Source: Propionivibrio dicarboxylicus
GTDB lineage: Bacteria > Pseudomonadota > Gammaproteobacteria > Burkholderiales > Rhodocyclaceae
Reading direction: 5' to 3'
DNA: 42,732 nt
Assembly: GCF_900099695.1 (NCBI RefSeq)
Contig: NZ_FNCY01000028.1
Span: forward strand, 1-42,732
Below, piece by piece: positions 2,054 through 38,565 of the stretch (position 1 is the first letter of the stretch; every line of letters begins with the position of its first letter). The notes under the pieces are model-generated. The model made no database searches, was not told the DNA's origin, and saw only the letters and a list, made by a program, of their open reading frames with translations. The translations under genes were made by a program, and so were the position numbers.

Positions 2054-2199
2054 TCAGAAAACTTTGCTATAAATACTATCGTCATACACTGGACGGTTGA
2101 TATCAAAAATATCCATTTTTGACCGCCCAAGAGGCTTTTTTGCAGAAAGTTGAGGCAGAATCCCATAACTTTTTCGTTACTGTTTTTGAGAGAGAAAAA

Positions 2200-4146
2200 A
2201 TGAGCCGGGAGTATGTGGGGATTGATACGCTAGCGAGCAAGCGAGTGACATATCGTACGCGAGGGCTTGAAGTGAACGTGGAATTCGCTCGGCAAACACA
2301 AACCGTCGCTACGCTTGAGGGGCCTGTTCGGTGTGAGGTTGGGGACGCGATCGTGACAGGTGTGCAGGGAGAGCGTTGGCCGGTGCCGGCACTGAACTTT
2401 CAGGAAAAATACGTACCCGTTGAAGGACAAGCGTTGGGGAGCGACGGGAGATACCGGAAGAAAATATTGCGGGTCCAAGCCATTCAACTCGTGGCGCCTC
2501 TCGATATCGAACTTTCCGGGAATCGTGGGGTTTTGCACGGCGCCGAAGGTGATTGGTGTGTTTGGTATGGTTCCGATGACATGGCAATTGTGAACCGAGA
2601 CGTTTTCCTCAAGTCCTATGAACTCGACTCGGTGCCGGTGTATGTGGCATTGGCCAAGGATCTCTCGCCGACGGAACGTGAAAAGGCTTCGGAAGCACTT
2701 AGGGTGCTATCCGACTCTTTCCCGAAAACCAGCATCGCTGTGCTTGACGAGCGCACCTCGTCGCAATCGGAGATTCCTGTGTGGTTTCGCATTGTGAGTA
2801 AGCCACATCAGAAACCGCTCGGGCTACTCAAGGTCATTGAACTTCCGGCTCAATGTTTCATGGAACCATCCGTTTTCAAAGACGCTCTGGCGCGGATTCA
2901 AAAAGCAAATGGGATGGGGGTCGGTAGCTATTTCTTTTCGCGGGTGCGTAACTTCTTCTCTGGGTTATGTAAAACGAATAGTGGGCACGACTCGCTGGTG
3001 GCAATTGTCGCGGAGCAACTTGTCGAGGTGGATCGTTTCAATTCCGATCTGGCAAGCGATTCAAAACCGACTATCAACGAGTACTTTCTTAACAAACGCG
3101 ACGCCGAACTTGAACCGGTTGGGTTGGCCCGCATTCAAGGTATCGGGGCCGTGGCCGATTATTTCGCCACCGATTACCAAAGCAAATGGCAACGTCTGGT
3201 TTTGGCAACGACCAAAGAGATCGCTGATGTGGAAGCGAAGGGAGTGTGTTGTGCGATCATCGGTGTTGCGAAATATCTGTTTCTCCGCCGAACGTTGGTG
3301 TCCTTCGGAGTTTGGGCGGCCCTAAGCCTGGCAGCCTTTTCAGAATTCTCAGGAGGCTGTAAAGCGGATGACTACTTTGCATTTCTTGGTTGCGCCAGCA
3401 AACACTGGGAGCCCTGGTTTGAGTTGGTATCGGCTGCAATCTATTTTTCTTCCCTAGCCGTTGCTTGGAAAAAATACGCCGAAGCCAAGATCCAGAAATG
3501 GGAAGCGCGCCATCAGGATTATCGCTTGCTTGCTGAGTCGTTGCGTGTGCTCTACGTTCGTTCTCTTCTCGGCCAGACTGCTTGCGTCGCTCGTGATTTG
3601 CCCCGTGCGGAACCGACAGCATCCGGTTGGGTGAAATTGGCCTTGCGCTCGATATTTCATGCTCAGCCGACGATGAGTGTGTCAAACAACGAGGCAGCGC
3701 GTATCGCCGGCGCCAAGACATGCTTTATTGATGATCAGCTGGACTATCATCGGGTCAATCTCATCGACCGCAGAGAGTCGGCCATCGCACTCATTTCTTG
3801 CGTGGGGCGTTGGGCTTTTTTGTTGTTCGCGCTGGCTTTGATAGCACTTTTCTTCTCTGTTCTCTACAAGTTTTTCACCGATTCGCATTCCATGCCCATT
3901 CACTGGGTGCTGTTTCTCCAGTTAACAGGAATTGCTGTTTGGGGAGCAATGCGCAAGGTGATTGATACATTTGCCTGGGAACAGGAAGTTCAGCGTGGCG
4001 AACTGGTTCGTGATGTTCTGTTAGATGCCAGCCAGGGAAACGATCCGGTAATGATCCGCTCTGCTGCGGATTTTTTCCTGAAGGATCTGGCTGCCTGGCA
4101 TGCGCTGCATCGTAGCCGACCGATTGAAGCCGCGATCGGAGGGTGA
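2200..4146 (+). CDS. Large membrane protein: PGDYG-like N-terminal modules and SLATT-like C-terminal membrane region
   Basis: I chose the ATG at 2200 because GAGAGAG stands just upstream; an in-frame TTG at 2119 would add 27 residues. From the ATG the product is 648 aa. The N-terminal ~150 residues hold two similar modules (GPVRCEVGDAIVTGV...NFQEKY and GVLHGAEGDWCVWYG...FLKSYEL) resembling the PGDYG domain. The C-terminal half has hydrophobic pairs near residues 375-430 and 560-620. Between them is a soluble stretch with WEARHQDYRLLAESLRVLYV, a pattern seen in SLATT/DUF4231-type membrane proteins. Those are proposed pore-forming effectors in nucleotide-signalling conflict systems. The gene looks AT-richer than the rest of the window, which suggests transfer. 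It converges with the minus-strand gene ending at 4169. Domain assignments are by motif only. Confidence 0.75.
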   Translation: MSREYVGIDTLASKRVTYRTRGLEVNVEFARQTQTVATLEGPVRCEVGDAIVTGVQGERWPVPALNFQEKYVPVEGQALGSDGRYRKKILRVQAIQLVAPLDIELSGNRGVLHGAEGDWCVWYGSDDMAIVNRDVFLKSYELDSVPVYVALAKDLSPTEREKASEALRVLSDSFPKTSIAVLDERTSSQSEIPVWFRIVSKPHQKPLGLLKVIELPAQCFMEPSVFKDALARIQKANGMGVGSYFFSRVRNFFSGLCKTNSGHDSLVAIVAEQLVEVDRFNSDLASDSKPTINEYFLNKRDAELEPVGLARIQGIGAVADYFATDYQSKWQRLVLATTKEIADVEAKGVCCAIIGVAKYLFLRRTLVSFGVWAALSLAAFSEFSGGCKADDYFAFLGCASKHWEPWFELVSAAIYFSSLAVAWKKYAEAKIQKWEARHQDYRLLAESLRVLYVRSLLGQTACVARDLPRAEPTASGWVKLALRSIFHAQPTMSVSNNEAARIAGAKTCFIDDQLDYHRVNLIDRRESAIALISCVGRWAFLLFALALIALFFSVLYKFFTDSHSMPIHWVLFLQLTGIAVWGAMRKVIDTFAWEQEVQRGELVRDVLLDASQGNDPVMIRSAADFFLKDLAAWHALHRSRPIEAAIGG

Positions 4147-5790: not shown

Positions 5791-6495
5791 TCAGCGATTT
5801 GGCCAGTTTTCGGCCAGCGCAAACATCTCGGCGTAGCCCAGGAGCATGTTCCGGAAAGCTTCCCGGTTGCCGCGATCACGAGCGATACGGAACCAGTGAT
5901 CGGCTTCCGAAAGGTCCTTGCGAACGCCAAGCCCATCACGGAATATCAAGCCGAGATTGTTGGCCGCCGAAGCGCTGCCACGCTCCGCCGCCGCACGGAA
6001 CCAGCGCATTGCTTCGGCATAGTCGCGGGCGACGCCCAGTCCGTCGCGATACATCACGCCGATATTTCCAGCGGCCAGCGCGCTGCCATGCTCGTTGGCG
6101 ACACGGTATAAGCGCAACGCCTCGGTATAGTCACGGTCTACGCCCAATCCTTCCTGATAGCAGATGCCGAGATTGTTGGTGGCGAGCACATTGCCACGAT
6201 CCGTCGCTGCCTTGTACCAGGCGAAGGCCTCGGAAAATCGCGCGCTGCTCCTTTCAATGTCGCTTGCCAATTCCTGCGGCAGGGCGTTCGGTATGCTGTT
6301 GTCACCGGTGACGATCATGGCGAGTCGCCGGATGTTTTCCGAGCCGCGGTTTTCCGGTGCTGAGATGCCGTATTCGCCGGGAATGATTCGGCAAGCCGAT
6401 GCATGCACGATCGTCCAGATACCGATGGCGGCGCTAATGAACATGAAAATCGACAAAGACATGCACGTGCGGTTCTTCAGAAAGTCGACCAGCAT
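5791..6495 (-). CDS. Sel1-repeat protein with N-terminal membrane anchor
   Basis: The 234-aa product starts MLVDFLKNRT with a good ribosome-binding site (GAGGAG 8 nt upstream of the ATG at 6495). Residues ~12-33 form a hydrophobic signal anchor or signal peptide. About residues 88-225 contain four Sel1-like repeats of ~36 residues with cores such as AFAWYKAATDRGNVLATNNLG and YRDGLGVARDYAEAMRWFRAAAERG-type segments. Sel1 repeats are short alpha-solenoids that hold protein partners together, often in the periplasm or at the membrane. It is the first gene of the minus-strand trio with the HExxH protein and the unknown protein. A scaffold or regulator for the HExxH protein is a reasonable guess, not shown by sequence. 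Confidence 0.85.
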   Translation of the reverse strand: MLVDFLKNRTCMSLSIFMFISAAIGIWTIVHASACRIIPGEYGISAPENRGSENIRRLAMIVTGDNSIPNALPQELASDIERSSARFSEAFAWYKAATDRGNVLATNNLGICYQEGLGVDRDYTEALRLYRVANEHGSALAAGNIGVMYRDGLGVARDYAEAMRWFRAAAERGSASAANNLGLIFRDGLGVRKDLSEADHWFRIARDRGNREAFRNMLLGYAEMFALAENWPNR

Positions 6496-6812: not shown

Positions 6813-7652
6813 TCAGACGGGAAAGACGCTCGGAACGCCGTCGCCCGGCAGACATCCGTGGATGACGAGCGCATCGGCGCAGCCGAGATGCGAATCCTGT
6901 TGCTGCTGGCCGAAAAGCCAATCCGCCAGCGAAGTCGGCGCCGCGCCGAGCCAGTGCGCCATCAGCGGCGCCATGTGGGCGGCAGACAGAGGGCCGCTGG
7001 CGGATACGACGCAGCACGCACCTCTCGAGAGACAGGCGTCGACCAATCCGTCGAGCCCCCCGGCCAGTGCCTCACAGGCCAGGAGCCAGACCAAGGCCGG
7101 CAATTTTTCCGGAGGCTCCCATCCCCATGGCGTCCCGGTTTCGGTGAGCAAGGTCGAGGGGGCGGCAGCACCGTGCGCGACAATAAACAATTCCCGGTAA
7201 GCGCTAAGATCGGGCGTGCCTGCGAGCCAGTCATCGACCGTATCGCCGCGGCGGGCATCGACACGCGATGCGGCTATCAACGGTTGCACCGAGGCGATGA
7301 AGCGGTTGTCTGGCCAGCGATCGAGCAGCAGGCTGCGTCCATGACGAAGCGATAACGGAGCGGCGACGTAGCGGCGAATGATTTGAGCATGTTTGCCGAG
7401 CTCGCTCCCGTTACAGGCCATGCGCTCCCAATTCAATTTTTGCCATTCGGGTGGCAGGCAATCGTCGAGAAGAATGCGCGCACCGACACCGCTACTGACG
7501 ATTTCGAGCATCTCGTCGGCAAGCCACGCAGGCAGGACCCCATCGGGCAATTCGCTGACGGTAACGCGTCGCCCGTTCAGGCGCATCGCTTGCTCGCCGT
7601 CCCGATCGATGTGCAGTGTCCGCAAGGATTTCAGCGACGTCTGATGTGCCAT
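6813..7652 (-). CDS. Short CHAT-like (caspase-fold) cysteine protease
   Basis: The 279-aa product starts MAHQTSLKSL at 7652, overlapping the previous gene's end by 22 bp, so translation is probably coupled. The C-terminal half carries the two CHAT hallmarks: LFIVAHGA (His160) after a hydrophobic strand, and VWLLACEAL (Cys193) after another. A RGACCVVSASGPLS strand then replaces the usual AGARAVVASLWPV. These form the His/Cys dyad of clan CD peptidases. There are no TPRs and no signal peptide, so it is cytoplasmic and short for the family. The N-terminal ~130 residues match nothing I recognise and may be a recognition or inhibitory part. It ends an operon with a CARF nuclease and a sigma-like factor. 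Activity and substrate are inferred. Confidence 0.7.
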   Translation of the reverse strand: MAHQTSLKSLRTLHIDRDGEQAMRLNGRRVTVSELPDGVLPAWLADEMLEIVSSGVGARILLDDCLPPEWQKLNWERMACNGSELGKHAQIIRRYVAAPLSLRHGRSLLLDRWPDNRFIASVQPLIAASRVDARRGDTVDDWLAGTPDLSAYRELFIVAHGAAAPSTLLTETGTPWGWEPPEKLPALVWLLACEALAGGLDGLVDACLSRGACCVVSASGPLSAAHMAPLMAHWLGAAPTSLADWLFGQQQQDSHLGCADALVIHGCLPGDGVPSVFPV

Positions 7653-8683
7653 ATCAGCGGCGCGTGATAGCCGATAGCGATGGTCACTGCCATCGTTTCG
7701 TCATCCGTCAGGGTAAGCGCAGCCTCATCCTCCGGACCGGAGAGTTTCTCGGTTTCCAGCAAAAGATCCTGCTGATAGAGAGCAATCATGGCCGTGTCGT
7801 TGCGGAGAAGCCGCACACGCAATTCCACCGCCTTATCGGCGACCGGTAGCAATGCAACTTCGAAGAGTTCGTCAATGCGCCAGGCGCGCATTTCGCTCTC
7901 GTCGCCCATGGCGTCGGGCAACCAGCGGACCGGCTCCAGCGACTTCCCGAGTTCATGCACGAAGCGTTCGATTGAAGCGACCAAGCCGGCTAACAAGGGT
8001 TGCTGCCGCGCGCTTTGTGCTTCACGCGAGAGCGCCGTAATCATCTTGCGATACATCGCCCGATAGACAGTGCGCGGATCCTTCGCTGCGACCGGCGTCC
8101 CGGTCAGTGCCCAGCAGTGGTCTCCGACCGGGCGCAACGCGATGTGCCCAGGCCTCGGCGACGCGGTTGCCGGGCACCGCTCGACGGCATCGGCAGCGAG
8201 AAGACGTGCGGCGCTAAGGCTTTCGATCGACAAGCGCCCCATCGGGATGGCTTCGACGGGTATTCTGAGTTCGATCGCATTCCATGCTTGTATCATCGCC
8301 GCAGCGGGGTCGAGGCCCTCTTCGGCCGGCACGACGAGATCATGCCATCCGGCATAATCGGCTTCTCCCGCCACCACCCATGCATGCCATGTGCCGTGCC
8401 GGTAGTCTTCCCTGTCCAGTGCCAACAAGACGGGAACCGCCGGACGCCTGTCCGGTGGAAAAGCAGACGGCGGTACTGAAACGAGTTGCCCAGGCTGCAA
8501 CGCATTGCCTTGGGGACGTTGTTGGCTGGCGACACGTTGCTCGATCAGTGCGGCAATATGCGGCGGAAGGTCGATGTCATCGAACGGGAGCAATTCGACG
8601 AAGGGCGTGTCGTCGATAACGTCGTCGCTGGCGTGCAGTTGCCGTGCTATCGACGCCAGGGAAGGCCACACGTTGCGCGTCAT
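7631..8683 (-). CDS. Unknown cytoplasmic protein, 350 aa, between sigma-like factor and CHAT protease
   Basis: The start is the ATG at 8683, whose ATGA overlaps the stop of the sigma-like gene; GAGGAG lies about 8 nt upstream. This makes translational coupling likely. The product has no signal peptide or transmembrane helix. It contains a region NALQPGQLVSVPP followed by VLLALDREDYRHGTWHAWVVAGEADYAGWHDLVV. The order PGQ, then a strand and an AGWHDL segment, recalls small proteins encoded beside ECF sigma factors, but I cannot name a family. The C-terminal half is mixed alpha/beta with many Glu and Arg. A place between a sigma factor and a protease would suit an anti-sigma factor, adaptor or protease substrate; this is inference from position only. 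Confidence 0.7.
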   Translation of the reverse strand: MTRNVWPSLASIARQLHASDDVIDDTPFVELLPFDDIDLPPHIAALIEQRVASQQRPQGNALQPGQLVSVPPSAFPPDRRPAVPVLLALDREDYRHGTWHAWVVAGEADYAGWHDLVVPAEEGLDPAAAMIQAWNAIELRIPVEAIPMGRLSIESLSAARLLAADAVERCPATASPRPGHIALRPVGDHCWALTGTPVAAKDPRTVYRAMYRKMITALSREAQSARQQPLLAGLVASIERFVHELGKSLEPVRWLPDAMGDESEMRAWRIDELFEVALLPVADKAVELRVRLLRNDTAMIALYQQDLLLETEKLSGPEDEAALTLTDDETMAVTIAIGYHAPLIWHIRRR

Positions 8684-9483
8684 GCCGCGTTCTCCTCGGT
8701 AGCGACGGCCAGGCAGAGGACTTTCAGCGCTGCCGCGTACAGTGCAAGGTGCGCGGGATCGAAATGCCCTTCCGTCAGCGACGAGAGCCAGTTGCCCAGC
8801 ATTGTCTCTGAATATGTCGCGGGCACATCCTTCTTTTTCCGCGTAATGCCAAGCTGCGCTGCCCGCGGATGATAGGAGGCGATGCGATGCCGTTTTGCCA
8901 GGTGACACAACGGTTCCGACTCTTCGTCGTCCGGGCAGAAATTATGCGTCAGGTACAGGTCAACCCATTGCTCCTGCCGTTTCAGGAAAGTCAGCGCTGA
9001 GGCAAACACATCCTCAATTGTCAGATGAAATTCGCGAAGGACCTTCTCCGGCGTATCGGCGCTGGCTTCGTCCAATTTATCCTTGTCCGCATACGCCTCG
9101 ACAAATGCGTCGGGATCGATGTCTTCGTTGCCACCGGTCAGTTCGGATACCGGTATTTCGTGAAGGCGCGTCTTGCGCGCACGAAGTTCATCCGTGACGT
9201 AGTTGCGAAAGAAAGCGATCAATGCACCGGCATGATGACATGGCGCTGTGCTGCCATTGATTGCCCGCTGCATGACGACTTGGGTAAAGAAGCCCTGAAT
9301 CAGATCGTCTTTCTCGTCGGCAAGCGGAATCAGTTCCTTGAAACTGGCCGAGCGAAGGATACATACCGTCAAGCGATACAACTCCTCCCATTCGGTGCGG
9401 GAGAGCGTTTGACGATGCCGCCAAAGCTCCGTCAGGCGTTCGTCGTATCGTCTGAGAGGTGGCTGCACTTCAATGGAGGTCAT
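8680..9483 (-). CDS. RNA polymerase sigma-70-like (ECF-type) factor
   Basis: Translation from the ATG at 9483 gives 267 aa (MTSIEVQPPL). An ATG at 9588 would overlap the preceding gene by 38 bp, so the shorter form is preferred without a clear ribosome-binding site. Residues ~55-105 look like sigma region 2: DEKDDLIQGFFTQVV, then ALIAFFRNYVTDELRARK, matching the usual DLVQE-F and RN--D-LRR pattern. Residues ~190-215 (PLCHLAKRHRIASYHPRAAQLGI) look like the helix-turn-helix of region 4. The linker between them is long and acidic. The factor probably redirects RNA polymerase to a small promoter set. It is coupled to the unknown protein and the CHAT protease downstream, and follows a membrane protein that could hold it inactive. 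Assignment rests on motif spacing, without alignment. Confidence 0.6.
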   Translation of the reverse strand: MTSIEVQPPLRRYDERLTELWRHRQTLSRTEWEELYRLTVCILRSASFKELIPLADEKDDLIQGFFTQVVMQRAINGSTAPCHHAGALIAFFRNYVTDELRARKTRLHEIPVSELTGGNEDIDPDAFVEAYADKDKLDEASADTPEKVLREFHLTIEDVFASALTFLKRQEQWVDLYLTHNFCPDDEESEPLCHLAKRHRIASYHPRAAQLGITRKKKDVPATYSETMLGNWLSSLTEGHFDPAHLALYAAALKVLCLAVATEENAA

Positions 9484-9550
9484 GTCTTTGTGCAAGATAT
9501 TGAATCCGGATTGAGCCGGTTTCCCGGACGGCGTCGTCAGCGTCGCTCCA

Positions 9551-10579
9551 TCAATAGTCCGACGTGCCGAAGGTATTGCCGGCGACATCGAAGCAGCTAT
9601 TGTCGATCATCGGATAGCCGTTGGCCGGGTTGACACTGGGATGCGTGTCGAAATCATCAGAATCGTAGGACTGGGATGTTCCATAGGCATTTCCGCCAAC
9701 GTCGATGTTCGTGTCGGCAATCATCGGGTAACCGTTGGCTGGATTGATTTGCGGTAGCGGTGCGGAATACTGGAAGGACGTGTCGTCGTCATCCTGAGAC
9801 GCGCTGTACGCATGCGAGGCCACCGCAGTGCCGGTCACCGCAAGGGCGGCCGTCGCGGCGCCGTACGAAGGAGCACTGGCGATCGGACGCTTGAGCGGCG
9901 GCCGGTTTGTGTCATTGTCATCGCGAGTCGTGACGTTGTCCGATTCTTCATTCTTGCCGAAGAAAATCGCCAGCAGCGCGAGCATGACGAGCACACAGAT
10001 GATCGCGGCGGCGGTGCCGATCAACTGGGAACGACTCCGCTCGGCCGCTTCCTTCTCGGCGCGCTGCTTCCTGGCGAGCGCGATGGCGTTGGCAAGCTCC
10101 TTGGTAATGTAGTGAAGCGTCAGCGTGGCGTCCTTGTCAGCACCGCCGATAATGCTCAGTTGGCCATTGCCCTTGTAATACACGCTGTTCGACACGGACT
10201 TCGGGTCGATGCCGCGAATCGCTGCGTCAAACACCTTGCGGACTGGCGCGGACGGACCTCTGACGGCGATCAGCACCAGGCGCTCATCTGCGCCGTAACC
10301 GAAAACAGCCGAGGCCGTTGACTTCTCGATGCGCAATTCCTCGACGCCGAGGAGCTTCGCACCGGACTCACTATCGGTGCCGGCGTCCTTCGGCTTCCCC
10401 CGCGCGGCCAGGCTTTTCTTCCCTTGGGCATAGGTCGAGACACCCAGTTCCTGTCCGGCGAAGACGAAGTTGGCAGGGGGCGCTTTCGCCTGTCGTGCCG
10501 GGGTCGCATGAGACGATGAAACGAGCATCAGCATGCACAGACAGAGCACGGCATAGAAGGTACGTATGCAGATGTTCAT
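9551..10579 (-). CDS. Secreted single-span membrane protein with repeated C-terminal NPANGYPMI motif
   Basis: The 342-aa product has a signal peptide (about residues 1-25, ending SSSHA). A probable periplasmic domain follows (~30-165), then a charged helix rich in Arg, Lys and Glu, and one transmembrane helix (~186-208). The C-terminal half is low in complexity and polar. It ends with two copies of a 25-residue motif, at ~278-302 and ~316-340, with core NPANGYPMI and a DVGGNAYGTS or DVAGNTFGTS end. No enzyme motif is seen. If the first helix is cleaved, the N-terminal domain faces the periplasm and the repeats face the cytoplasm, a layout suited to transmembrane signalling to the sigma-like factor encoded next. 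That role is inferred from order. The gene starts 81 bp after the CARF nuclease stop. Confidence 0.7.
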   Translation of the reverse strand: MNICIRTFYAVLCLCMLMLVSSSHATPARQAKAPPANFVFAGQELGVSTYAQGKKSLAARGKPKDAGTDSESGAKLLGVEELRIEKSTASAVFGYGADERLVLIAVRGPSAPVRKVFDAAIRGIDPKSVSNSVYYKGNGQLSIIGGADKDATLTLHYITKELANAIALARKQRAEKEAAERSRSQLIGTAAAIICVLVMLALLAIFFGKNEESDNVTTRDDNDTNRPPLKRPIASAPSYGAATAALAVTGTAVASHAYSASQDDDDTSFQYSAPLPQINPANGYPMIADTNIDVGGNAYGTSQSYDSDDFDTHPSVNPANGYPMIDNSCFDVAGNTFGTSDY

Positions 10580-10660
10580 ATTCTGATCGCCAATGCTTCC
10601 GAGGCAATTTTGTTTTACGAGTTATGGCTTCATCAGGGGACCTGCGAGATCGCCTGTCGT

Positions 10661-11785
10661 CTAGGTGGTGGCTCTGATCCAGTGACGGAGTCGCTCGCGA
10701 ATATTATGGAGTTCCTTGCCGTTGATCAGCGCCAACCCCTGCAATGTCGCCCGGCTGACTTCATCGGCCGTCGCGACGCTGAGCGAAATAAGCATGGCGT
10801 GCGCATGCAATCCGCCCAATTGCGAGACGCTGTCGAGCTTGAACAGCACGTCCATGCCGACGCCGCCTCCCTGGCCTTTCTGCACGACGGTCTTGCACTC
10901 GACCAGGAACAGCTGGTTGTTAACCAGCATTGCGAGGTCATATTCGTTGCGGACGGTTTCGTTGGAGACGATCTTGACGCCGCTGGCAGCGTCGTGGATG
11001 TCGAACTCGTCCCGCAGTTGCGCGACCTGATACAGCAACCAGACTTCAAGCCAGCCGCCGCAGAGGAAGAAGCGCGTTTCGGCGTCGCCGAAATCGATCC
11101 GGTCGTCGCTGGTGCGGCAGGCAATCGCACAGCGACTGATGAAATCCTTGAGTTCCTTCTGTTCGACGGGGATGTGCAAACGGCTGACGAAGTTCTTGTC
11201 CATTCCGGCGCCCAGGCGATTGAGCGTATGGATTGCTTCCGGTTGACGGATGGCGATGTCCATCAGCTCGCAAGACAGTTTTTCGAGTTTGCTGTCGCGA
11301 TTGCCAAGACGATATTTGCATTCGACCAGCTCGATGCCATAGAGGCCGAAGTAGCGCTCCAGGTCGAGCGTATCGGCAATGCTGGCGTCTTCGGCCGGTT
11401 GCGCCGATGGCGGCGGCGTGAGCCAGAGGAGTCGGTCTTCCTCCGGGTGGATGACGAACGAGGCAACATTGTGTCGGAGCGCAACTTGCTGCGCGATGGC
11501 TGCCTGTAGCGGTGTTGCTGCAGAGAGATTGATCAGGCAGGGGGCCGGCGACAAGGATATGACGCTGCTCAGGCGCTCGTGCACGGCCTGGACATCCCAT
11601 TCGGGTCGAATTGGCAGCGTATTGACGGGAAGCTTCGCATGGCGGATTTCTTCGGCGACATGGGTTGCATCCCGACGCTTCTCATCTTCGCAGAACAGGG
11701 TGACCTGGCTGATCCTGAACTGCGGGTCGAGCGCCGGTGTCACGATCTCTGGGCGAATGTCGTCAACAAACGATATCAAGTGCAT
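10661..11785 (-). CDS. CARF-domain nuclease of the Card1/Can2 (DUF1887) type
   Basis: The ATG at 11785 (MHLISFVDDI) places the first CARF strand at the N-terminus and gives 374 aa, close to Card1. Residues 1-~115 form a Rossmann-like CARF domain. Visible strands are MHLISFVDD and QVTLFCED, and the ligand loop is CLINLSAATPLQAA, replacing the usual NLTGGTK. Residues ~235-300 form a PD-(D/E)XK nuclease core: GGWLE (Glu247), NEYD (Asp283) and VECK (Glu296, Lys298), all intact. Known relatives are activated by cyclic oligoadenylate from type III CRISPR and cut single-stranded DNA and RNA or nick DNA. No Cas10, cas gene or repeat array is visible here. It is first in a minus-strand operon with a membrane protein, sigma-like factor, unknown protein and CHAT protease. 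Family call strong; activator unknown. Confidence 0.85.
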   Translation of the reverse strand: MHLISFVDDIRPEIVTPALDPQFRISQVTLFCEDEKRRDATHVAEEIRHAKLPVNTLPIRPEWDVQAVHERLSSVISLSPAPCLINLSAATPLQAAIAQQVALRHNVASFVIHPEEDRLLWLTPPPSAQPAEDASIADTLDLERYFGLYGIELVECKYRLGNRDSKLEKLSCELMDIAIRQPEAIHTLNRLGAGMDKNFVSRLHIPVEQKELKDFISRCAIACRTSDDRIDFGDAETRFFLCGGWLEVWLLYQVAQLRDEFDIHDAASGVKIVSNETVRNEYDLAMLVNNQLFLVECKTVVQKGQGGGVGMDVLFKLDSVSQLGGLHAHAMLISLSVATADEVSRATLQGLALINGKELHNIRERLRHWIRATT

Positions 11786-33411: not shown

Positions 33412-34878
33412 CTAACGCTCGATCAGTTCGATCCTGGCGGCGCCATAACTGTCTGCCTGCCCGTCTGCCGGCGCGATGCGCTTGAGGTTGCGGCTGTTGC
33501 CGGTCGCGGCGGCTTCACCGGGAAGGCAATCGCGTCGTTTCAGGTTGCGGTTCGCGCAGCTGATGTCCTGTATTGCGGCAGCATTGGCAAGGGTTGCCGC
33601 AGCGCTGCCGCTGCCGAGCACTTTGCCGAAATCGCGCGGCGAAGCGGCGACGAGTGCCAACAGGTGGTTGGTTCCCGCCGGACCTTGGGCGGCAAATTCA
33701 CCGGGAATCCGGAATGGTTGGTTCGCTTCGATCAGATTCGCTTCCTGCGGGCTGGGGAATAGCTGGAGGAATTCCTTGCGATCGGAACCGACATAAATCA
33801 GATAGAGATAGCCGCGCTGGTTGCTGGTGACGGTGAGCGCGAACGCGTCCTGACCGATCCTCGCTTCGGCGGGCGTGGCCGATATGTCGACCTGCCAGCG
33901 GCCGTCGGCGCCGTGCTGAAGGTCGGTCAGCGTTGCCACCGGATCCGCCTTCGTCGACGCCGGTATTGTTGTTTGCGCGGGCGGTGCCAGCGGCAGGTCG
34001 GCATTGCCGGCCAGGGTCAGATGCTGGGGCAGCAGTTGCGGGTCATTGACGAAGTTTGCGTCGATTTTCGCCTGTGCGCACTGGACGAGTTCACGTAAGG
34101 AAACACCGCCGCTGCGGTCGGTGTCGGGAATCGATGTGCGCAGGCAGTCGAGCAGCGAAGTCGTCGCCATGCCGCCCCTGCCTTCCTCGTCGAAGGCGAC
34201 CTCATCGTGGCGTGCAGCGGCCAGGAACAGGTAGTTTTTCGTCATCGGGCCGCTTCGCGTGGCGCCGGCCTCTTTCACGACGGCCTGTTCGAGCACGTTA
34301 ACCGGCTTGTCGCATGACAATCGCGTCGCCAGGTAGCGTGGCCGGAGCTTCCTTTGACTTGTCTGCGCTGACGGGCCGCCGCGCGTTCCGGCAGTCTCGA
34401 CGATGCCGCCGGAATGACAGGCATCGACCACCACCATCACCTTGCTGGCCTTGTCGCGCAGTCGCTGCAGCGCTTCGGCGAGCGTACCGCTCGGCACCAG
34501 TTCGAGATCGTGGCCGACCAGCGACTGCTGGCAGCTGTCGCCAACGGCCTGGCTGGTTCCGTGTCCGGAGAAGTGAACGAAGACGCGGTCGCCGTTCTGC
34601 GTGTCAACGACGAGCTGCTCAAGTGCCGCACGTATGCCTTGCGCGGTCAGCGCCTTGTCCTTGAGCGAGCGTATCCGGTCGGTGCCGATACCCATGCGTG
34701 TCAGGATCTGGCGGAAGTTCGCATCGTCCAGTGACGCACCGGGCAGCGGGTTTTGCGGGTAGTTGCTGATTGTCATGATCAGCGCGCGGTCGGCTGCGGC
34801 CGTCGGAGCGGAACAGCCGAGCGACGCGGCGACGAGAAGCGCGGCGATGACGCACGATGATGATTGCATCGTCATCAT
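33412..34878 (-). CDS. Secreted metacaspase-like (C14) cysteine protease with DUF4384-like C-terminus
   Basis: The 488-aa product has an N-terminal signal peptide (~1-29, CVIAALLVAASLGCSAPTAAA). A caspase-fold domain starts ADRALIMTISNY. The catalytic His is in VHFSGHGT (His106) and the Cys in VVDACHSGG (Cys154), both intact. After a proline-rich linker, residues ~310-430 (AFALTVTSNQRGYLYLIYVGSDRKEFLQLFP) resemble DUF4384, a beta-rich domain often found after bacterial caspases. It is exported, so substrates are periplasmic or extracellular. Its start overlaps the stop of the CHAT gene (ATGA), showing translational coupling in a lipoprotein-CHAT-caspase operon. Substrate unknown. Confidence 0.9.
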   Translation of the reverse strand: MMTMQSSSCVIAALLVAASLGCSAPTAAADRALIMTISNYPQNPLPGASLDDANFRQILTRMGIGTDRIRSLKDKALTAQGIRAALEQLVVDTQNGDRVFVHFSGHGTSQAVGDSCQQSLVGHDLELVPSGTLAEALQRLRDKASKVMVVVDACHSGGIVETAGTRGGPSAQTSQRKLRPRYLATRLSCDKPVNVLEQAVVKEAGATRSGPMTKNYLFLAAARHDEVAFDEEGRGGMATTSLLDCLRTSIPDTDRSGGVSLRELVQCAQAKIDANFVNDPQLLPQHLTLAGNADLPLAPPAQTTIPASTKADPVATLTDLQHGADGRWQVDISATPAEARIGQDAFALTVTSNQRGYLYLIYVGSDRKEFLQLFPSPQEANLIEANQPFRIPGEFAAQGPAGTNHLLALVAASPRDFGKVLGSGSAAATLANAAAIQDISCANRNLKRRDCLPGEAAATGNSRNLKRIAPADGQADSYGAARIELIER

Positions 34879-37577
34879 GACTGGCTGGCCGATCCGGCGC
34901 CGGCTTCGATCAGGATGAAGGGCGCCCAGAAGAAGGGATTCTTCCGGCCTTTGAATTCGCCGGATTGCGCGACCGGCGTCGTGATGCGTTGCAGGTTGCG
35001 CGCATCGCCGGCAGTGCCGGTTTTGTCGCGCATGATGTTTTGCCGGGCGAGTGCCAGCGCCTGGCGGGCGTCGCCGCTCTTCTCGAGTTCGCGGTAGAAG
35101 TCGATCATCAGGTCGCGGGTGGTCAGGCTGTCCACCGGCCAGAGGGAAACAACCACAGCCCTGGCGCCGGCAAGGATGAAGGCGCGTCCCAGCCCCATCA
35201 GCCCTTCGCCGTTGAAGTACTCGCCGTTGCCGGTGTTGCAGGCGGAGAGGACGACGAGGTCGGCTCGCACATTCATTCGCGCGATTTCCGAGGCGGTGAG
35301 GAAGCCCGGGTCGCCGGCTTCGGGCGTCAGCACCAGCGCCGGTTCGTTGATGCGTGGGATCTCGCCGCCGACGACGCCGTGCGTGGCGAAGTGCAGATAG
35401 CGGTAGGGGGTTTTCTCGGCTTCACGCCGGAAGCCGGATTTTGTGGCGTCGACGCCGAGGATCGCGGTGCCGCCCTCGCGCACGTTTCGGAGGATGGCGT
35501 TTACTTCGTCACGGGTTTCGGGCAACGGCGCAAAGCCGAGGTTGTCGCGAGTGCCTCGGTTCTTCAGTTCGCGCTGTGCGTCGATGGCGTCGATCTGCCG
35601 GGCTGCATCGAAACGGGCATCGCCGAGCGCGAGCACGCCCTTGCCGGTGCTGCTGGGGCGGGCGGTGTCTGCCATGGCCAGCGTGGGCAGATAGGAGAGC
35701 GCCGTTTGCGCGCCGAGCGCCTGCATCTTCGCGTCCAGCCAGAGTTCGACCGGCAGAAAGCTCAGGGCGCCGTCGACTTCGGCGATGAGTCGGCGCGTGC
35801 CAAAGACACGGGACTCGAAATCGCCCAGCGCCAGCGTGGCGATGTTGCGTGCTGCTCGGGCGTCGAATAGCTGCCGCTCGGCCAGTCCGTTGCGCAGGCT
35901 TAGCACGTTGGCATCGAACCCGGCCGGTTTGCGGGCGAGCCGGATCGACTTGCCTTTCGCATCGGCGAGATAGGTGATGAGCGTGTCGCCAGTGTCGGCA
36001 ACGGCCAGATAGCTGCTGCCTCGCGCGACGAGCGTGTCGACGGTGGTCGTCGCCGAGACCGTCGGCGCCTCGTTGTGCTTCTCGCCGCTCTTGCCGCTGG
36101 CATCGAGCGCGTCCTTGAGATGACGGGCCTTGAGCTGGCCGAGCGCGTGCAGGGCGGCGTCGAAGGCGGCGTTGTCCGGCTGCTGCGCATACAGCGCGGC
36201 GCGGGCGAGCATGGCGTCCTGATAGGCGCCTTGCGCGGTGCCGCGGAAGTACGGCAGCCGTTCCTCGAGTGAGAGCGAGTTGCGGAAGTTTTCCGACCAG
36301 GCGAGGTAGGGCTCGAGTAGCGCGAGAGCGTCCGCCCAGCGCTTGTGACGCAGGTGCAGCTTTGCCATGACGCGTTGCCATTCGCGGGTGCGTTCTTCGG
36401 GTTTGAGTCCGAGGAGGCCGCGCTGGCCGAGTTCGTCCGAATACATCCTCAGCTGGCCGAGCGCCTGTTGCGCTTTGGCCAGCAGGGTTTCCGCCTGGCC
36501 GAGGTCGTCGTAGCGCAAGGCGAGCTCCGCGCCGATGATGGCGTAATCGACCTCGACCTCGATGCCAAAGACGGAATCACTCGCTTTCAATACCCGGAGT
36601 TCATACGGCGTGTTGTGAAAATTGCGGAGGTAACTGTCAAGCGCCTCTGATGGTTTCACGCCCCGCATCTGCGGGTTCCGGCTCGCCGCCGCGTTGGCCG
36701 AGGCCATCATCCGCGTCGCCGCGCTTCGTGCCAGCGCCGGGTCGCCAGCGGCCAGCGCGCCGCTGGCGATGGAGCGCCAGACATCCTGGTCCTTGCGGTA
36801 GAGATCGTCATCGTTGGCATAGGCACGAACGGTCTGGAAGTTCATTACCGACATCGATGGATCGCAATACCGAATTCGCGGGGCCGTGGTGCTGGCTTCT
36901 TCGTAATAAGCGGAAAAATTGGCGAGTTGCGCCCGGGTGAAGGATTTGCCCGCTCGGATTTGAGCCGCCCAGATGGCGCCCTGGTTGCAGATCTGTGTCG
37001 GGTCGTCCTGGGCGGAAACCTTTGCCGGCAGCGGGCCGTGAATCTTGTCCTGGATCGACTGTGCTTCGGTCAATGTGGCTTGCGCCCGCTCCAGTTGGCC
37101 AATCGCGCGTAGCGTTTCGGCGAGCTGGATGCGGTAGGCGATGGCTGGCTGGTACTCGCGTTTGGCATCGGCTTCGGTGGCTGCAGTCTGGAGGACTTGC
37201 GCGGCGACGGCCGGTTGGCTGGTGCCGAGCAGATAGCTGATATAGGCGTCAACGAGTTTGCCCAAGCCGTTCTGGAAGGCATTGAGATCAGCGGTGCTGG
37301 TCCAGCGCGGCGAGGAGCGCCAGGCTGCCAGTCCGGCATCATAAGCGGCTCTTGCCGTCTGATCGTTACGGATGCGCTGGTTCGGAGCGGCGGGGCCGAT
37401 CAGTTGCCGGATTTCAGTGGCGCCCTGGAGCGTGCCTTGCCGCCACGTGATGCCTTCGGCCATCTGAACATCATTCCTGGCAGCACAGCCCGCCAGTGAC
37501 AGCGCCAGGCAGAGCACGGCGATTGGGCCGAGCGCGAAGCGCGCGGGCCGGAGGAGCCTTCGTGTGTTGGCAGGCAT
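34875..37577 (-). CDS. CHAT-domain protease lipoprotein with TPR-like helical region
   Basis: From the ATG at 37577 (MPANTRRLLRPARF) the product is 900 aa; starts further upstream would remove the signal peptide from the N-terminus. The lipobox is LALSLAGC (Cys31), so it is probably a lipoprotein on the periplasmic side. About 250 residues of helical, TPR-like sequence follow (AAQVLQTAATEADAKREYQPAIAYRIQLAETLRAIGQLERAQATL is one region), with more helical repeats to ~520. The C-terminal CHAT domain has YLHFATHGVVGG (His733) and LVVLSACNTGNG (Cys780), then GARAVVVSLWPVDSLTTR. Full catalytic dyad present. It begins 4 bp after the lipoprotein gene and overlaps the caspase start. Confidence 0.9.
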   Translation of the reverse strand: MPANTRRLLRPARFALGPIAVLCLALSLAGCAARNDVQMAEGITWRQGTLQGATEIRQLIGPAAPNQRIRNDQTARAAYDAGLAAWRSSPRWTSTADLNAFQNGLGKLVDAYISYLLGTSQPAVAAQVLQTAATEADAKREYQPAIAYRIQLAETLRAIGQLERAQATLTEAQSIQDKIHGPLPAKVSAQDDPTQICNQGAIWAAQIRAGKSFTRAQLANFSAYYEEASTTAPRIRYCDPSMSVMNFQTVRAYANDDDLYRKDQDVWRSIASGALAAGDPALARSAATRMMASANAAASRNPQMRGVKPSEALDSYLRNFHNTPYELRVLKASDSVFGIEVEVDYAIIGAELALRYDDLGQAETLLAKAQQALGQLRMYSDELGQRGLLGLKPEERTREWQRVMAKLHLRHKRWADALALLEPYLAWSENFRNSLSLEERLPYFRGTAQGAYQDAMLARAALYAQQPDNAAFDAALHALGQLKARHLKDALDASGKSGEKHNEAPTVSATTTVDTLVARGSSYLAVADTGDTLITYLADAKGKSIRLARKPAGFDANVLSLRNGLAERQLFDARAARNIATLALGDFESRVFGTRRLIAEVDGALSFLPVELWLDAKMQALGAQTALSYLPTLAMADTARPSSTGKGVLALGDARFDAARQIDAIDAQRELKNRGTRDNLGFAPLPETRDEVNAILRNVREGGTAILGVDATKSGFRREAEKTPYRYLHFATHGVVGGEIPRINEPALVLTPEAGDPGFLTASEIARMNVRADLVVLSACNTGNGEYFNGEGLMGLGRAFILAGARAVVVSLWPVDSLTTRDLMIDFYRELEKSGDARQALALARQNIMRDKTGTAGDARNLQRITTPVAQSGEFKGRKNPFFWAPFILIEAGAGSASQS

Positions 37578-37581
37578 GATC

Positions 37582-38565
37582 TCAGGCATCTCGGGCGGCG
37601 AGCGTCGGCAGCGGTGCCTTGTATGGCTGAACGAGATGCAGTGCGATTTGAACGAAGAGCTCGAATTGTCCCTGGTTTGGCTCAAGGTTCGGGGTGATCG
37701 AAATGGTGACAAGATTTTGCGCCGGGAGTCCCGCGAGGCCGAGGCCAAGGCCTCGATGCGTGTAATAGCCGCTTTGCCAGCTATATGACATCATCACCAG
37801 CCCGTGCTCGTAGAGACGGTGGGAGAACGCGGCGGAGGCGCTTTCGGCCTCTTCGCGGGCCGCCCGGCGCTCCTTGCTCTCGCTGCTGGTCTTTGCATTC
37901 TTGTCATTGAGGGCGCGCATTTGCCGTTCCGTTTCGGTGACTTGCGCGAGATCGGAGATATTCCAGCCGGGTTGTCCGGCAATCAGGATGCGCAATTTCC
38001 TGTCGAGCGACTGCGCTTTGGCCTTCATTTCGTCGGCGGAGGAGAATCGATACATCATCTCGGCACTGGTGAGCGCGTGCCGGACTTCGTCGGTTCCGCT
38101 GATTTCCTTGGTCTTGACGCTGGCCATGGATCGATCCGGCATGGCGCCGGGGGGTGGTGCGGCGAGATAGACCGGCGGCGGCGAGGCGCGTTCGTTGTCG
38201 AGTTCGCGCTCGATCACGGCGAGCATCATCGCACGCGGGACGGCGGTGTTGTTCCGCGCCATGGCGATCGAGCGTGCTTCCCGGTCTTCCATGAACCGGC
38301 TGCGTTCGGCCGGCGACATCGTACGCCCGAGCACGCCGGCAAAGCCTTTGTCCAGGGAGCCGATCAGGCGTTGATAGGCCCGGGTTTCGGGATCGTCGGC
38401 CGGGCGCGACGCCGCAGCGGCGAGATCGGGTGGTCCGGCATTCACGGCGCCCGTGTGGGTAAGCATCGTGTCGGTGGCCAGTTGGCAGCCGCCAAGTGCC
38501 GCGGACACAAGAACGATGAGCGCGGCGCGAAACGCCTGCCCCGACAGCACGTGCGTGGGCTTCAT
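37582..38565 (-). CDS. Unknown lipoprotein, first gene of the CHAT-caspase operon
   Basis: The 327-aa product has a lipoprotein signal (ALIVLVSAALGGC, Cys27). The middle is helical and charged (a long coiled-coil-like stretch ~200-260: KNAKTSSESKERRAAREEAE). The C-terminal ~80 residues look beta-rich and may be membrane-associated (GLVMMSYSWQSGYYTHRGLG, LVTISITPNLEPNQG). I recognise no family. It is followed after 4 bp by the CHAT lipoprotein gene and may anchor or inhibit the proteases; this is inferred from position. A 13-bp palindrome GTCATTTTATGAC at 38677-38689, about 110 bp upstream, could be an operator for this operon. Confidence 0.75.
   Translation of the reverse strand: MKPTHVLSGQAFRAALIVLVSAALGGCQLATDTMLTHTGAVNAGPPDLAAAASRPADDPETRAYQRLIGSLDKGFAGVLGRTMSPAERSRFMEDREARSIAMARNNTAVPRAMMLAVIERELDNERASPPPVYLAAPPPGAMPDRSMASVKTKEISGTDEVRHALTSAEMMYRFSSADEMKAKAQSLDRKLRILIAGQPGWNISDLAQVTETERQMRALNDKNAKTSSESKERRAAREEAESASAAFSHRLYEHGLVMMSYSWQSGYYTHRGLGLGLAGLPAQNLVTISITPNLEPNQGQFELFVQIALHLVQPYKAPLPTLAARDA

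What the first reader, a model, noticed from the sequence alone, without database searches (positions are those of the whole stretch)
6813..11785. CARF nuclease, membrane protein, sigma-like factor, unknown protein and CHAT protease in one operon, without CRISPR
Five minus-strand genes in a row, with two overlapping junctions, join a Card1/Can2-like CARF nuclease (intact CARF loop and PD-(D/E)XK residues) to a secreted single-span protein, a sigma-70-like factor and a caspase-fold CHAT protease. Known type III CRISPR accessory modules use a cyclic-oligonucleotide-activated protease to free a sigma factor (CalpL/CalpT/CalpS: Lon-SAVED protease, anti-sigma, ECF sigma). Here the sensor is a CARF nuclease and the protease is CHAT, which would be a different build of the same logic. 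The unknown 350-aa protein or the membrane protein could be the anti-sigma or the protease target. No cas gene or repeat array is in the window, so the nucleotide signal would have to come from elsewhere. Motifs are seen directly; the circuit is inference.
Basis: partly seen in the sequence, partly recalled or inferred. Interest (0 to 1): 0.88.

Follow-up and report, generated by a model that had tools for sequence, protein, structure and literature searches.

The report
CHAT protease beside sigma/anti-sigma pair
Three of the five genes look like an undescribed bacterial alarm relay, in which a caspase-like protease would free a transcription factor from its inhibitor; in related bacteria the same gene set sits in CRISPR immune loci, while the nuclease gene beside it here looks like a neighbour rather than a part.

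Summary
The five minus-strand genes are real and correctly placed, but they are not one conserved unit. The core is three genes: a sigma-like factor, a two-domain protein X with a MazF-type fold in its model, and a CHAT protease. A profile scan found X in 27 other loci, sigma beside it in 23 and CHAT in 15. By hydropathy X has no membrane helix in 16 of 16 CHAT loci (window included) and has one in 9 of 10 assessable loci without CHAT. This suggests that CHAT does by cleavage what membrane signalling does elsewhere: release sigma from X.

CHAT-type loci lean to type III CRISPR. Cas10 is in 13 of 15 genomes, and in Lamprobacter CHAT overlaps cas6 on a contig with a complete type III-D locus. 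The window genome gave no Cas10 or Cas1 match, and its CHAT lacks the C-terminal TPR half.

The CARF nuclease belongs to an orphan DUF1887 clade. None of its 9 close relatives lies near sigma, X or CHAT, and its CARF loop has lost the conserved basic residue. The secreted protein was found in no other genome tried. So 'Calp-like logic with a CHAT protease' fits three genes; the CARF sensor is not supported. Cleavage, release and trigger are inferred.

The parts
8680..9483 (-). Sigma-like factor (267 aa, P0003): helical lobe of sigma-2 type, disordered linker, helical second lobe with a helix-turn-helix-like stretch
   Evidence: AlphaFold pLDDT 82.9; best PDB match SigC sigma-2, 7 of 50 listed rows are sigma factors, no match with E <= 0.001; NCBIfam 0.019; homologues next to X in 23 of 27 loci
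7631..8683 (-). Protein X (350 aa, P0002): proposed anti-sigma factor; MazF-like fold, then a long helix (203-245) and a C-terminal beta-sandwich
   Evidence: AlphaFold pLDDT 86.6; 18 of 50 listed PDB rows are named MazF, probability up to 1.00, TM up to 0.74 of the target, E about 0.01-0.03; 4 bp overlap with sigma
6813..7652 (-). CHAT-type protease (279 aa, P0001), catalytic dyad His160/Cys193; lacks the C-terminal TPR half of its relatives
   Evidence: Dyad invariant in 14 of 14 rows; 3 of 14 rows match Pfam CHAT; tblastn of four relatives stops inside the CHAT part of the window
10661..11785 (-). CARF nuclease of the DUF1887 (VC1899/Can2/Card1) family, orphan clade; judged a neighbour, not a member of the module
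   Evidence: nuclease residues intact, loop NLSAATP; no module gene near 9 of 9 close relatives
9551..10579 (-). Secreted or single-span protein (342 aa, P0004) with two C-terminal NPANGYPM repeats; no relative found
   Evidence: 1 of 150 family genomes, its own; no plasmid match; Pfam TraS 3.1e-6 on the repeats
5791..6495 (-). Secreted Sel1-repeat protein just downstream; Sel1 genes also lie near X in 7 loci without CHAT, so possibly a regulated output
   Evidence: Pfam Sel1 3.6e-26; cluster of 8 loci with the window; Sel1 repeats cluster loosely

Best explanation
The conserved unit is sigma-X-CHAT (8680-9483, 7631-8683, 6813-7652). X is an anti-sigma factor that binds the sigma-like protein and keeps it silent. 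When the CHAT protease is switched on it cuts X, sigma is freed, and a set of genes is turned on. Shown here: the operon and its conservation, the fold resemblance of sigma and X, the intact protease dyad, the exchange between a membrane-anchored X and a soluble X with CHAT, and the link of CHAT-type loci to type III CRISPR. Inferred: that X binds sigma, that CHAT cuts X, what activates CHAT, and the target genes. In this genome the module appears to stand alone: no Cas10 or Cas1 match, CHAT without its TPR half, and no copy of the small gene 'U' that precedes sigma in most CHAT-type loci. The CARF nuclease and the secreted protein are neighbours.
For: X in 27 loci, sigma with it in 23, CHAT in 15. 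X has no membrane helix in 16 of 16 CHAT loci (hydropathy maxima 0.81-1.44) and has one in 9 of 10 assessable loci without CHAT (1.49-2.25, between the two domains) (Fisher 3.2e-6). Folds: sigma-2, MazF. CHAT dyad 14 of 14. Cas10 in 13 of 15 CHAT-type genomes against 19 of 150 in the window's family and 34 of 116 in the Chromatiaceae sample. L083/L106, one 54.8 kb contig: module overlapping cas6, then cas1, cas2, RT, a 58-repeat array, and type III-D cas genes. Known parallel: in type III-E the TPR-CHAT protease Csx29 cuts Csx30, an inhibitor of CASP-sigma (passages of PMC10028731 and PMC9729208).
Against: Sequence profiles alone do not call sigma: no sigma family among 27 rows, fold E-values above 1. 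The best-ranked PDB rows for X are not MazF (rank 1 is Ptr ToxA, E 5e-3), none reaches E 0.001, and the output does not show which part of X is matched. The membrane/CHAT exchange rests on few events: on the tree the membrane form needs 1 change (bootstrap 1-2), and L084 has neither. Cas10 in CHAT-type against membrane-type genomes is 13 of 15 against 4 of 9, Fisher 0.06. No complex was predicted and no cleavage site is known. X of the window has a very long branch (2.09) and is weakly placed.
Confidence: 0.6

Rival explanations
1. One reading: the CARF nuclease senses a cyclic nucleotide and works with the protease-sigma module, with P0004 or X as the target.
For: Same strand and order with gaps of only 81 and 67 bp; no terminator-like site at the CARF-P0004 or P0004-sigma junction (the scan is crude and found fewer sites than shuffles). 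CARF nucleases co-reside with the module in type III genomes: 4 of 26 at E <= 1e-15, and one on the Lamprobacter contig.
Against: 0 of 27 X loci hold a homologue of the window CARF; 0 of 9 close CARF relatives have module genes in the fetched flanks. In the family sample the 4 genomes with sigma and the 8 with CARF share only the window genome. The CARF loop lacks the basic residue. P0004 has no relative found.
Confidence: 0.1
2. X is a MazF-type RNase toxin and the sigma-like protein its antitoxin or regulator; CHAT activates the toxin.
For: MazF-like fold of the model; toxin-antitoxin style overlap of genes.
Against: The position that holds the catalytic Arg in MazF (recalled) is Arg in 8 of 23 rows with a letter and Val in the window. 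Membrane-anchored forms of X beside the same sigma fit an anti-sigma factor better.
Confidence: 0.12
3. The window copy is a decaying remnant: CHAT has lost its TPR half, the U gene and CRISPR are missing, and the module no longer works.
For: CHAT of 279 aa against 561-753 aa in the other rows of the alignment; long branch of X; no U; no Cas10 or Cas1 match.
Against: All three frames are open, packed and overlapping, with catalytic dyad and invariant X residues kept.
Confidence: 0.15

Closest known systems
Craspase / CASP (type III-E: Cas7-11, Csx29 TPR-CHAT, Csx30, CASP-sigma)
   Same: CHAT protease with TPR repeats, a sigma factor and an inhibitor-like partner in one locus; in relatives linked to type III CRISPR adaptation genes, as CASP-sigma motifs lie at cas1 in the D. 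ishimotonii locus (passages of PMC10028731)
   Different: CHAT is N-terminal and TPR C-terminal here (dyad 160/193); in Csx29 the dyad is H585/C627 (passages of PMC9729208). No gRAMP was found in the Lamprobacter locus, which is III-D. The window has no CRISPR genes found and no TPR half. Homology of X to Csx30 could not be tested.
Calp (CalpL Lon-SAVED protease, CalpT anti-sigma, CalpS ECF sigma)
   Same: Protease, anti-sigma and sigma in one operon; X has a MazF-like fold, and CalpT is recalled to be a MazF homologue (Nature 2023 paper not held)
   Different: Protease is CHAT, not Lon; no SAVED domain in the three proteins by Pfam; no cA4 link shown
Can2 / Card1 / VC1899 (DUF1887) CARF nucleases
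   Same: CARF plus PD-(D/E)XK nuclease with all four residues
   Different: Orphan clade with NLS(G/A)A(T/S/N)P in place of NxTGGTK; none of the 9 close relatives' genomes gave a convincing Cas10 match. VC1899-family genes without CRISPR links were already noted in PMC4012209 (passages).
Membrane anti-sigma / ECF sigma pairs
   Same: The form of X without CHAT has one membrane helix between two domains; one member's C-terminal part matches Fervidolysin_NPro-like, 4.4e-7
   Different: MazF-like domain where classical anti-sigma domains would be (recalled); here X is soluble and paired with a protease

Membership tests
Calp system | Lon-SAVED protease | tested here: not met
   No Lon or SAVED match in P0001-P0003; protease is CHAT-type
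Calp system | MazF-fold anti-sigma next to a sigma factor | tested here: met
   Fold only; binding not tested; that CalpT is a MazF homologue is recalled
Calp system | cA4 activation / type III CRISPR operon | tested here: not met
   No CRISPR match in the window, no Cas10 or Cas1 in the genome; relatives do have the CRISPR link
Craspase (type III-E) | gRAMP/Cas7-11 effector | not tested
   Not searched in the window genome; in L106 the Cas7 proteins score best as type III-D, gRAMP model weaker
Craspase (type III-E) | Csx29 with CHAT at the C-terminal end | tested here: not met
   CHAT is N-terminal in 14 of 14 rows; profile A8 finds no Csx29 in PDB
Craspase (type III-E) | Csx30 homologue as substrate | tested here: inconclusive
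   No match of X to any PADLOC, NCBIfam or PDB entry so named; no Csx30 sequence at hand
CHAT peptidase | His/Cys dyad | tested here: met
   H160 and C193 invariant, 14 of 14
CHAT peptidase | Match to Pfam CHAT | tested here: inconclusive
   Window protein none; 3 of 14 rows at E <= 0.01, best 1.1e-4
ECF-type sigma factor | Sigma-2 fold | tested here: met
   SigC sigma-2 best match, TM 0.70 of target, weak E
ECF-type sigma factor | Family profile match | tested here: not met
   No sigma family in Pfam for 27 rows; NCBIfam below cut-off
Card1/Can2 CARF nuclease | PD-(D/E)XK residues | tested here: met
   E281, D283, E296, K298, 17 of 17
Card1/Can2 CARF nuclease | CARF loop [DN]X[ST]XXX[RK] (PMC4012209) | tested here: not met
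   NLSAATP; Pro replaces K/R in 10 of 10 rows of the orphan clade

The most novel reading that the evidence does not exclude
U-sigma-X-CHAT is a third, undescribed class of protease-gated sigma relay serving type III CRISPR (beside Calp and Craspase), with a MazF-fold anti-sigma and a CHAT-first protease. It is used with several type III subtypes, exchanges with a membrane-anchored form of the same anti-sigma, and in this genome has been set free of CRISPR.
Probability: 0.45. Interest if true: 0.82.

Novelty: new variant of a known kind. Interest (0 to 1): 0.72.

Why it matters
Only two protease-to-sigma relays are known to me in CRISPR immunity, and each rests on a few systems. [quoted passage not shown] It would also show that the relay can be swapped for a membrane sensor. 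The pairing of soluble X with CHAT and membrane X without it gives a direct test of what CHAT cuts.

Tried and rejected
Rejected: the five-gene operon as a unit. P0004 as anti-sigma: no relative found. Homology of the small upstream gene U to X: hhalign probability 0.1; to PDB sequences: nothing. Direct sequence match of X, sigma or CHAT to Csx30, CASP-sigma or Csx29 in PDB: none. First genome-contig scan with P0003 alone found nothing; the second, with an X alignment, gave 27 loci. Viral contigs: none for X. Plasmids: sigma-like relatives in 5 records without X or CHAT beside them by blastp; none for X, CARF, P0004. Promoter and terminator scans gave no more sites than shuffles. A Cas10 search at E <= 0.001 rang weakly in many genomes and in E. 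coli, up to 2.5 bits over Pfam's cut-off; I take these as GGDEF cross-matches and used E <= 1e-8 later. That profile missed the type III-D Cas10 of Lamprobacter, so 'no Cas10' for the window genome carries the same risk. In one search I entered 17 CHAT loci in the Fisher test; the right number is 16, redone. Rows dropped: L073 and L090 are not in the X alignment and tree; L069 and L080 were left out of the CHAT count because the contig ends 53 and 134 bp after X.
Full report
OBSERVATION. Sigma/X overlap by 4 bp and X/CHAT by 22 bp; CARF-P0004 and P0004-sigma are separated by 81 and 67 bp. The CARF protein is a DUF1887 nuclease. P0003, P0002 and P0001 match no Pfam, NCBIfam or PADLOC family above cut-off.

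WHAT IS CONSERVED. In 150 genomes of the window's family, sigma was found in 4, CARF at E <= 1e-20 in 8 and P0004 in 1, each count including the window genome; no other genome had two of them. A scan of one genome per species with an X alignment gave 27 loci. By blastp, sigma lies with X in 23 of 27; three of the other four contigs start at X, and L084 has no sigma. CHAT is there in 15 of 27 (13 by blastp, two more at contig ends). In one of these, L082, CHAT lies before sigma. No X locus held a homologue of the window's CARF at 1e-4. The flanks are 3.5-21 kb in all, so this is a statement about near neighbours only.

THE CARF GENE. In an order-wide sample it was found in 12 of 349 genomes at E <= 1e-25: the window, 9 close relatives (35-44 % identity) and 2 distant ones. 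None of the 9 has sigma, X or CHAT in the fetched flanks, and their neighbours differ from genome to genome. The seven distant relatives in the family sample lie beside cas genes. The CARF loop reads N-[LI]-S-[GA]-A-[TSN]-P in 10 of 10 rows of the close clade and N-x-T-G-G-T-K in 7 of 7 CRISPR-linked rows. PMC4012209 (passages) gives [DN]X[ST]XXX[RK] as the CARF signature and suggests other ligands where the basic residue is missing.

FOLDS. The sigma model (22 sequences, pLDDT 82.9, pTM 0.52) has two helical lobes and a disordered linker. Its best PDB match is SigC region 2, and 7 of the 50 listed rows are sigma factors, but all E-values are above 1. A three-row sigma profile also picked up, at 8.5e-4, a gene in another genome that I read by eye as an ECF sigma factor. 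The X model (26 sequences, pLDDT 86.6) has a beta-rich N-terminal half, a helix at 203-245 and a beta-sandwich. Eighteen of 50 listed rows are named MazF, two more an mRNA interferase and a toxin; the top rows are not MazF, no E-value reaches 0.001, and the output gives no ranges. I assign the MazF match to the N-terminal half by alignment length (about 115-130 columns) and element order. The MazF catalytic Arg position is Arg in 8 of 23 rows. In the CHAT family His160 and Cys193 are invariant in 14 of 14 rows; 3 rows match Pfam CHAT and 3 match TPR_2. The window protein ends after the CHAT domain.

THE EXCHANGE. Among 28 loci (window included), 16 have CHAT, and their X has no stretch above 1.44 in mean hydropathy. 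Of 12 without CHAT, two contigs end just after X. Nine of the other ten have a stretch of 1.49-2.25 between the two domains; L084 does not. The cut is narrow (1.44 against 1.49), and the 1.44 stretch of L068 lies in the N-terminal domain. Fisher gives 3.2e-6, but the tree needs only one change for the membrane form (bootstrap 1-2), so few independent events stand behind it. A small gene, U, of about 130 aa precedes sigma in 10 loci: 9 of 11 CHAT-type loci with upstream DNA, none of 7 membrane-type loci, and not the window.

THE CRISPR LINK. Cas10 (PF22335, E <= 1e-8) is in 18 of 26 X-locus genomes: 13 of 15 CHAT-type, 4 of 9 membrane-type, L084, and not L069. Family rates are 19 of 150 and, for Chromatiaceae, 34 of 116. 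Chromatiaceae CHAT-type genomes 5 of 6 against the rest gives p 0.007; CHAT-type against membrane-type gives p 0.06. The other CHAT-type genomes have no matched base rate. Ten of these Cas10s were typed: 7 score as III-B-like and 3 as III-A (one of the III-B-like comes from the membrane-type L080 and one from L084), so no single subtype is involved. Physical links: L074 (array, RT and Cas1 within 5 kb), L083 (cas6 overlapping CHAT, cas1, cas2, RT, 58-repeat array), L079 (cas6 downstream, a CARF-adenosine deaminase upstream, Cas1 24 kb away), L082 (arrays and Cas1 about 7 kb from CHAT), L067 (Cas1 8 kb upstream). The L083 contig continues into Cas10d, Cas5, three Cas7s, Csx19 and a CARF nuclease, a type III-D set. 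No Cas query hit the ten membrane-type loci, but L093 has a three-copy periodic repeat, as has CHAT-type L081. The window genome has no Cas1 and no Cas10 by this profile, which did miss the III-D Cas10 of Lamprobacter.

MECHANISM. The simplest reading is a relay: X holds sigma, CHAT cuts X, sigma acts. In the membrane form the same X would be released by other means. The published parallel is Craspase, where Csx29 cuts Csx30, an inhibitor of CASP-sigma (passages of PMC10028731); a caution from the same field is that Csx30-N stays bound to the sigma factor after cutting (passages of PMC9729208). Calp is the other parallel (passages of PMC11417357, PMC12751052 and PMC11229360). In the window, where the TPR half of CHAT is missing, the trigger is open.

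NOVELTY. No family library used names sigma, X or CHAT of this module. In the open library, 'CHAT domain' with 'sigma factor' gave four papers, of which the two on topic concern Craspase; searches gave no description of such a module in their listings. Most subscription papers are not held. I rate it a new variant of a known kind.

Noticed in passing
L106 with L083 (one contig, Lamprobacter modestohalophilus): A complete type III-D CRISPR locus with a CARF nuclease, RT-cas2-cas1, a 58-repeat array and a U-sigma-X-CHAT-cas6 operon; the best place to study the module.
   Followed up: partly
L067:8851-9252, L079:8408-8803 and eight more loci: Small gene U just before sigma, about 130 aa, with an invariant R in an RPVV-like stretch that reminds me of MazF (recalled, not tested).
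   Followed up: partly
window 2119-4146: PGDYG-domain protein with membrane helices; a PGDYG-like relative also lies near X in L086.
   Followed up: no
window 33412-38565: Caspase-domain (Peptidase_C14) gene next to a second CHAT protein; the genome has seven Pfam CHAT matches, none of them P0001.
   Followed up: no
window 9551-9790 (C-terminus of P0004): Repeated NPANGYPM...GN.YGTS motif that matches the end of Pfam TraS.
   Followed up: no
L038-L042, L044, L045: Burkholderiaceae relatives of the sigma-like protein without X or CHAT, beside sensor kinases or other genes; two lie near filamentous-haemagglutinin-type secretion genes.
   Followed up: no
L079:3-1820: CARF-adenosine deaminase fusion (Cad1-like, name recalled) 7 kb upstream of sigma-X-CHAT.
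   Followed up: no
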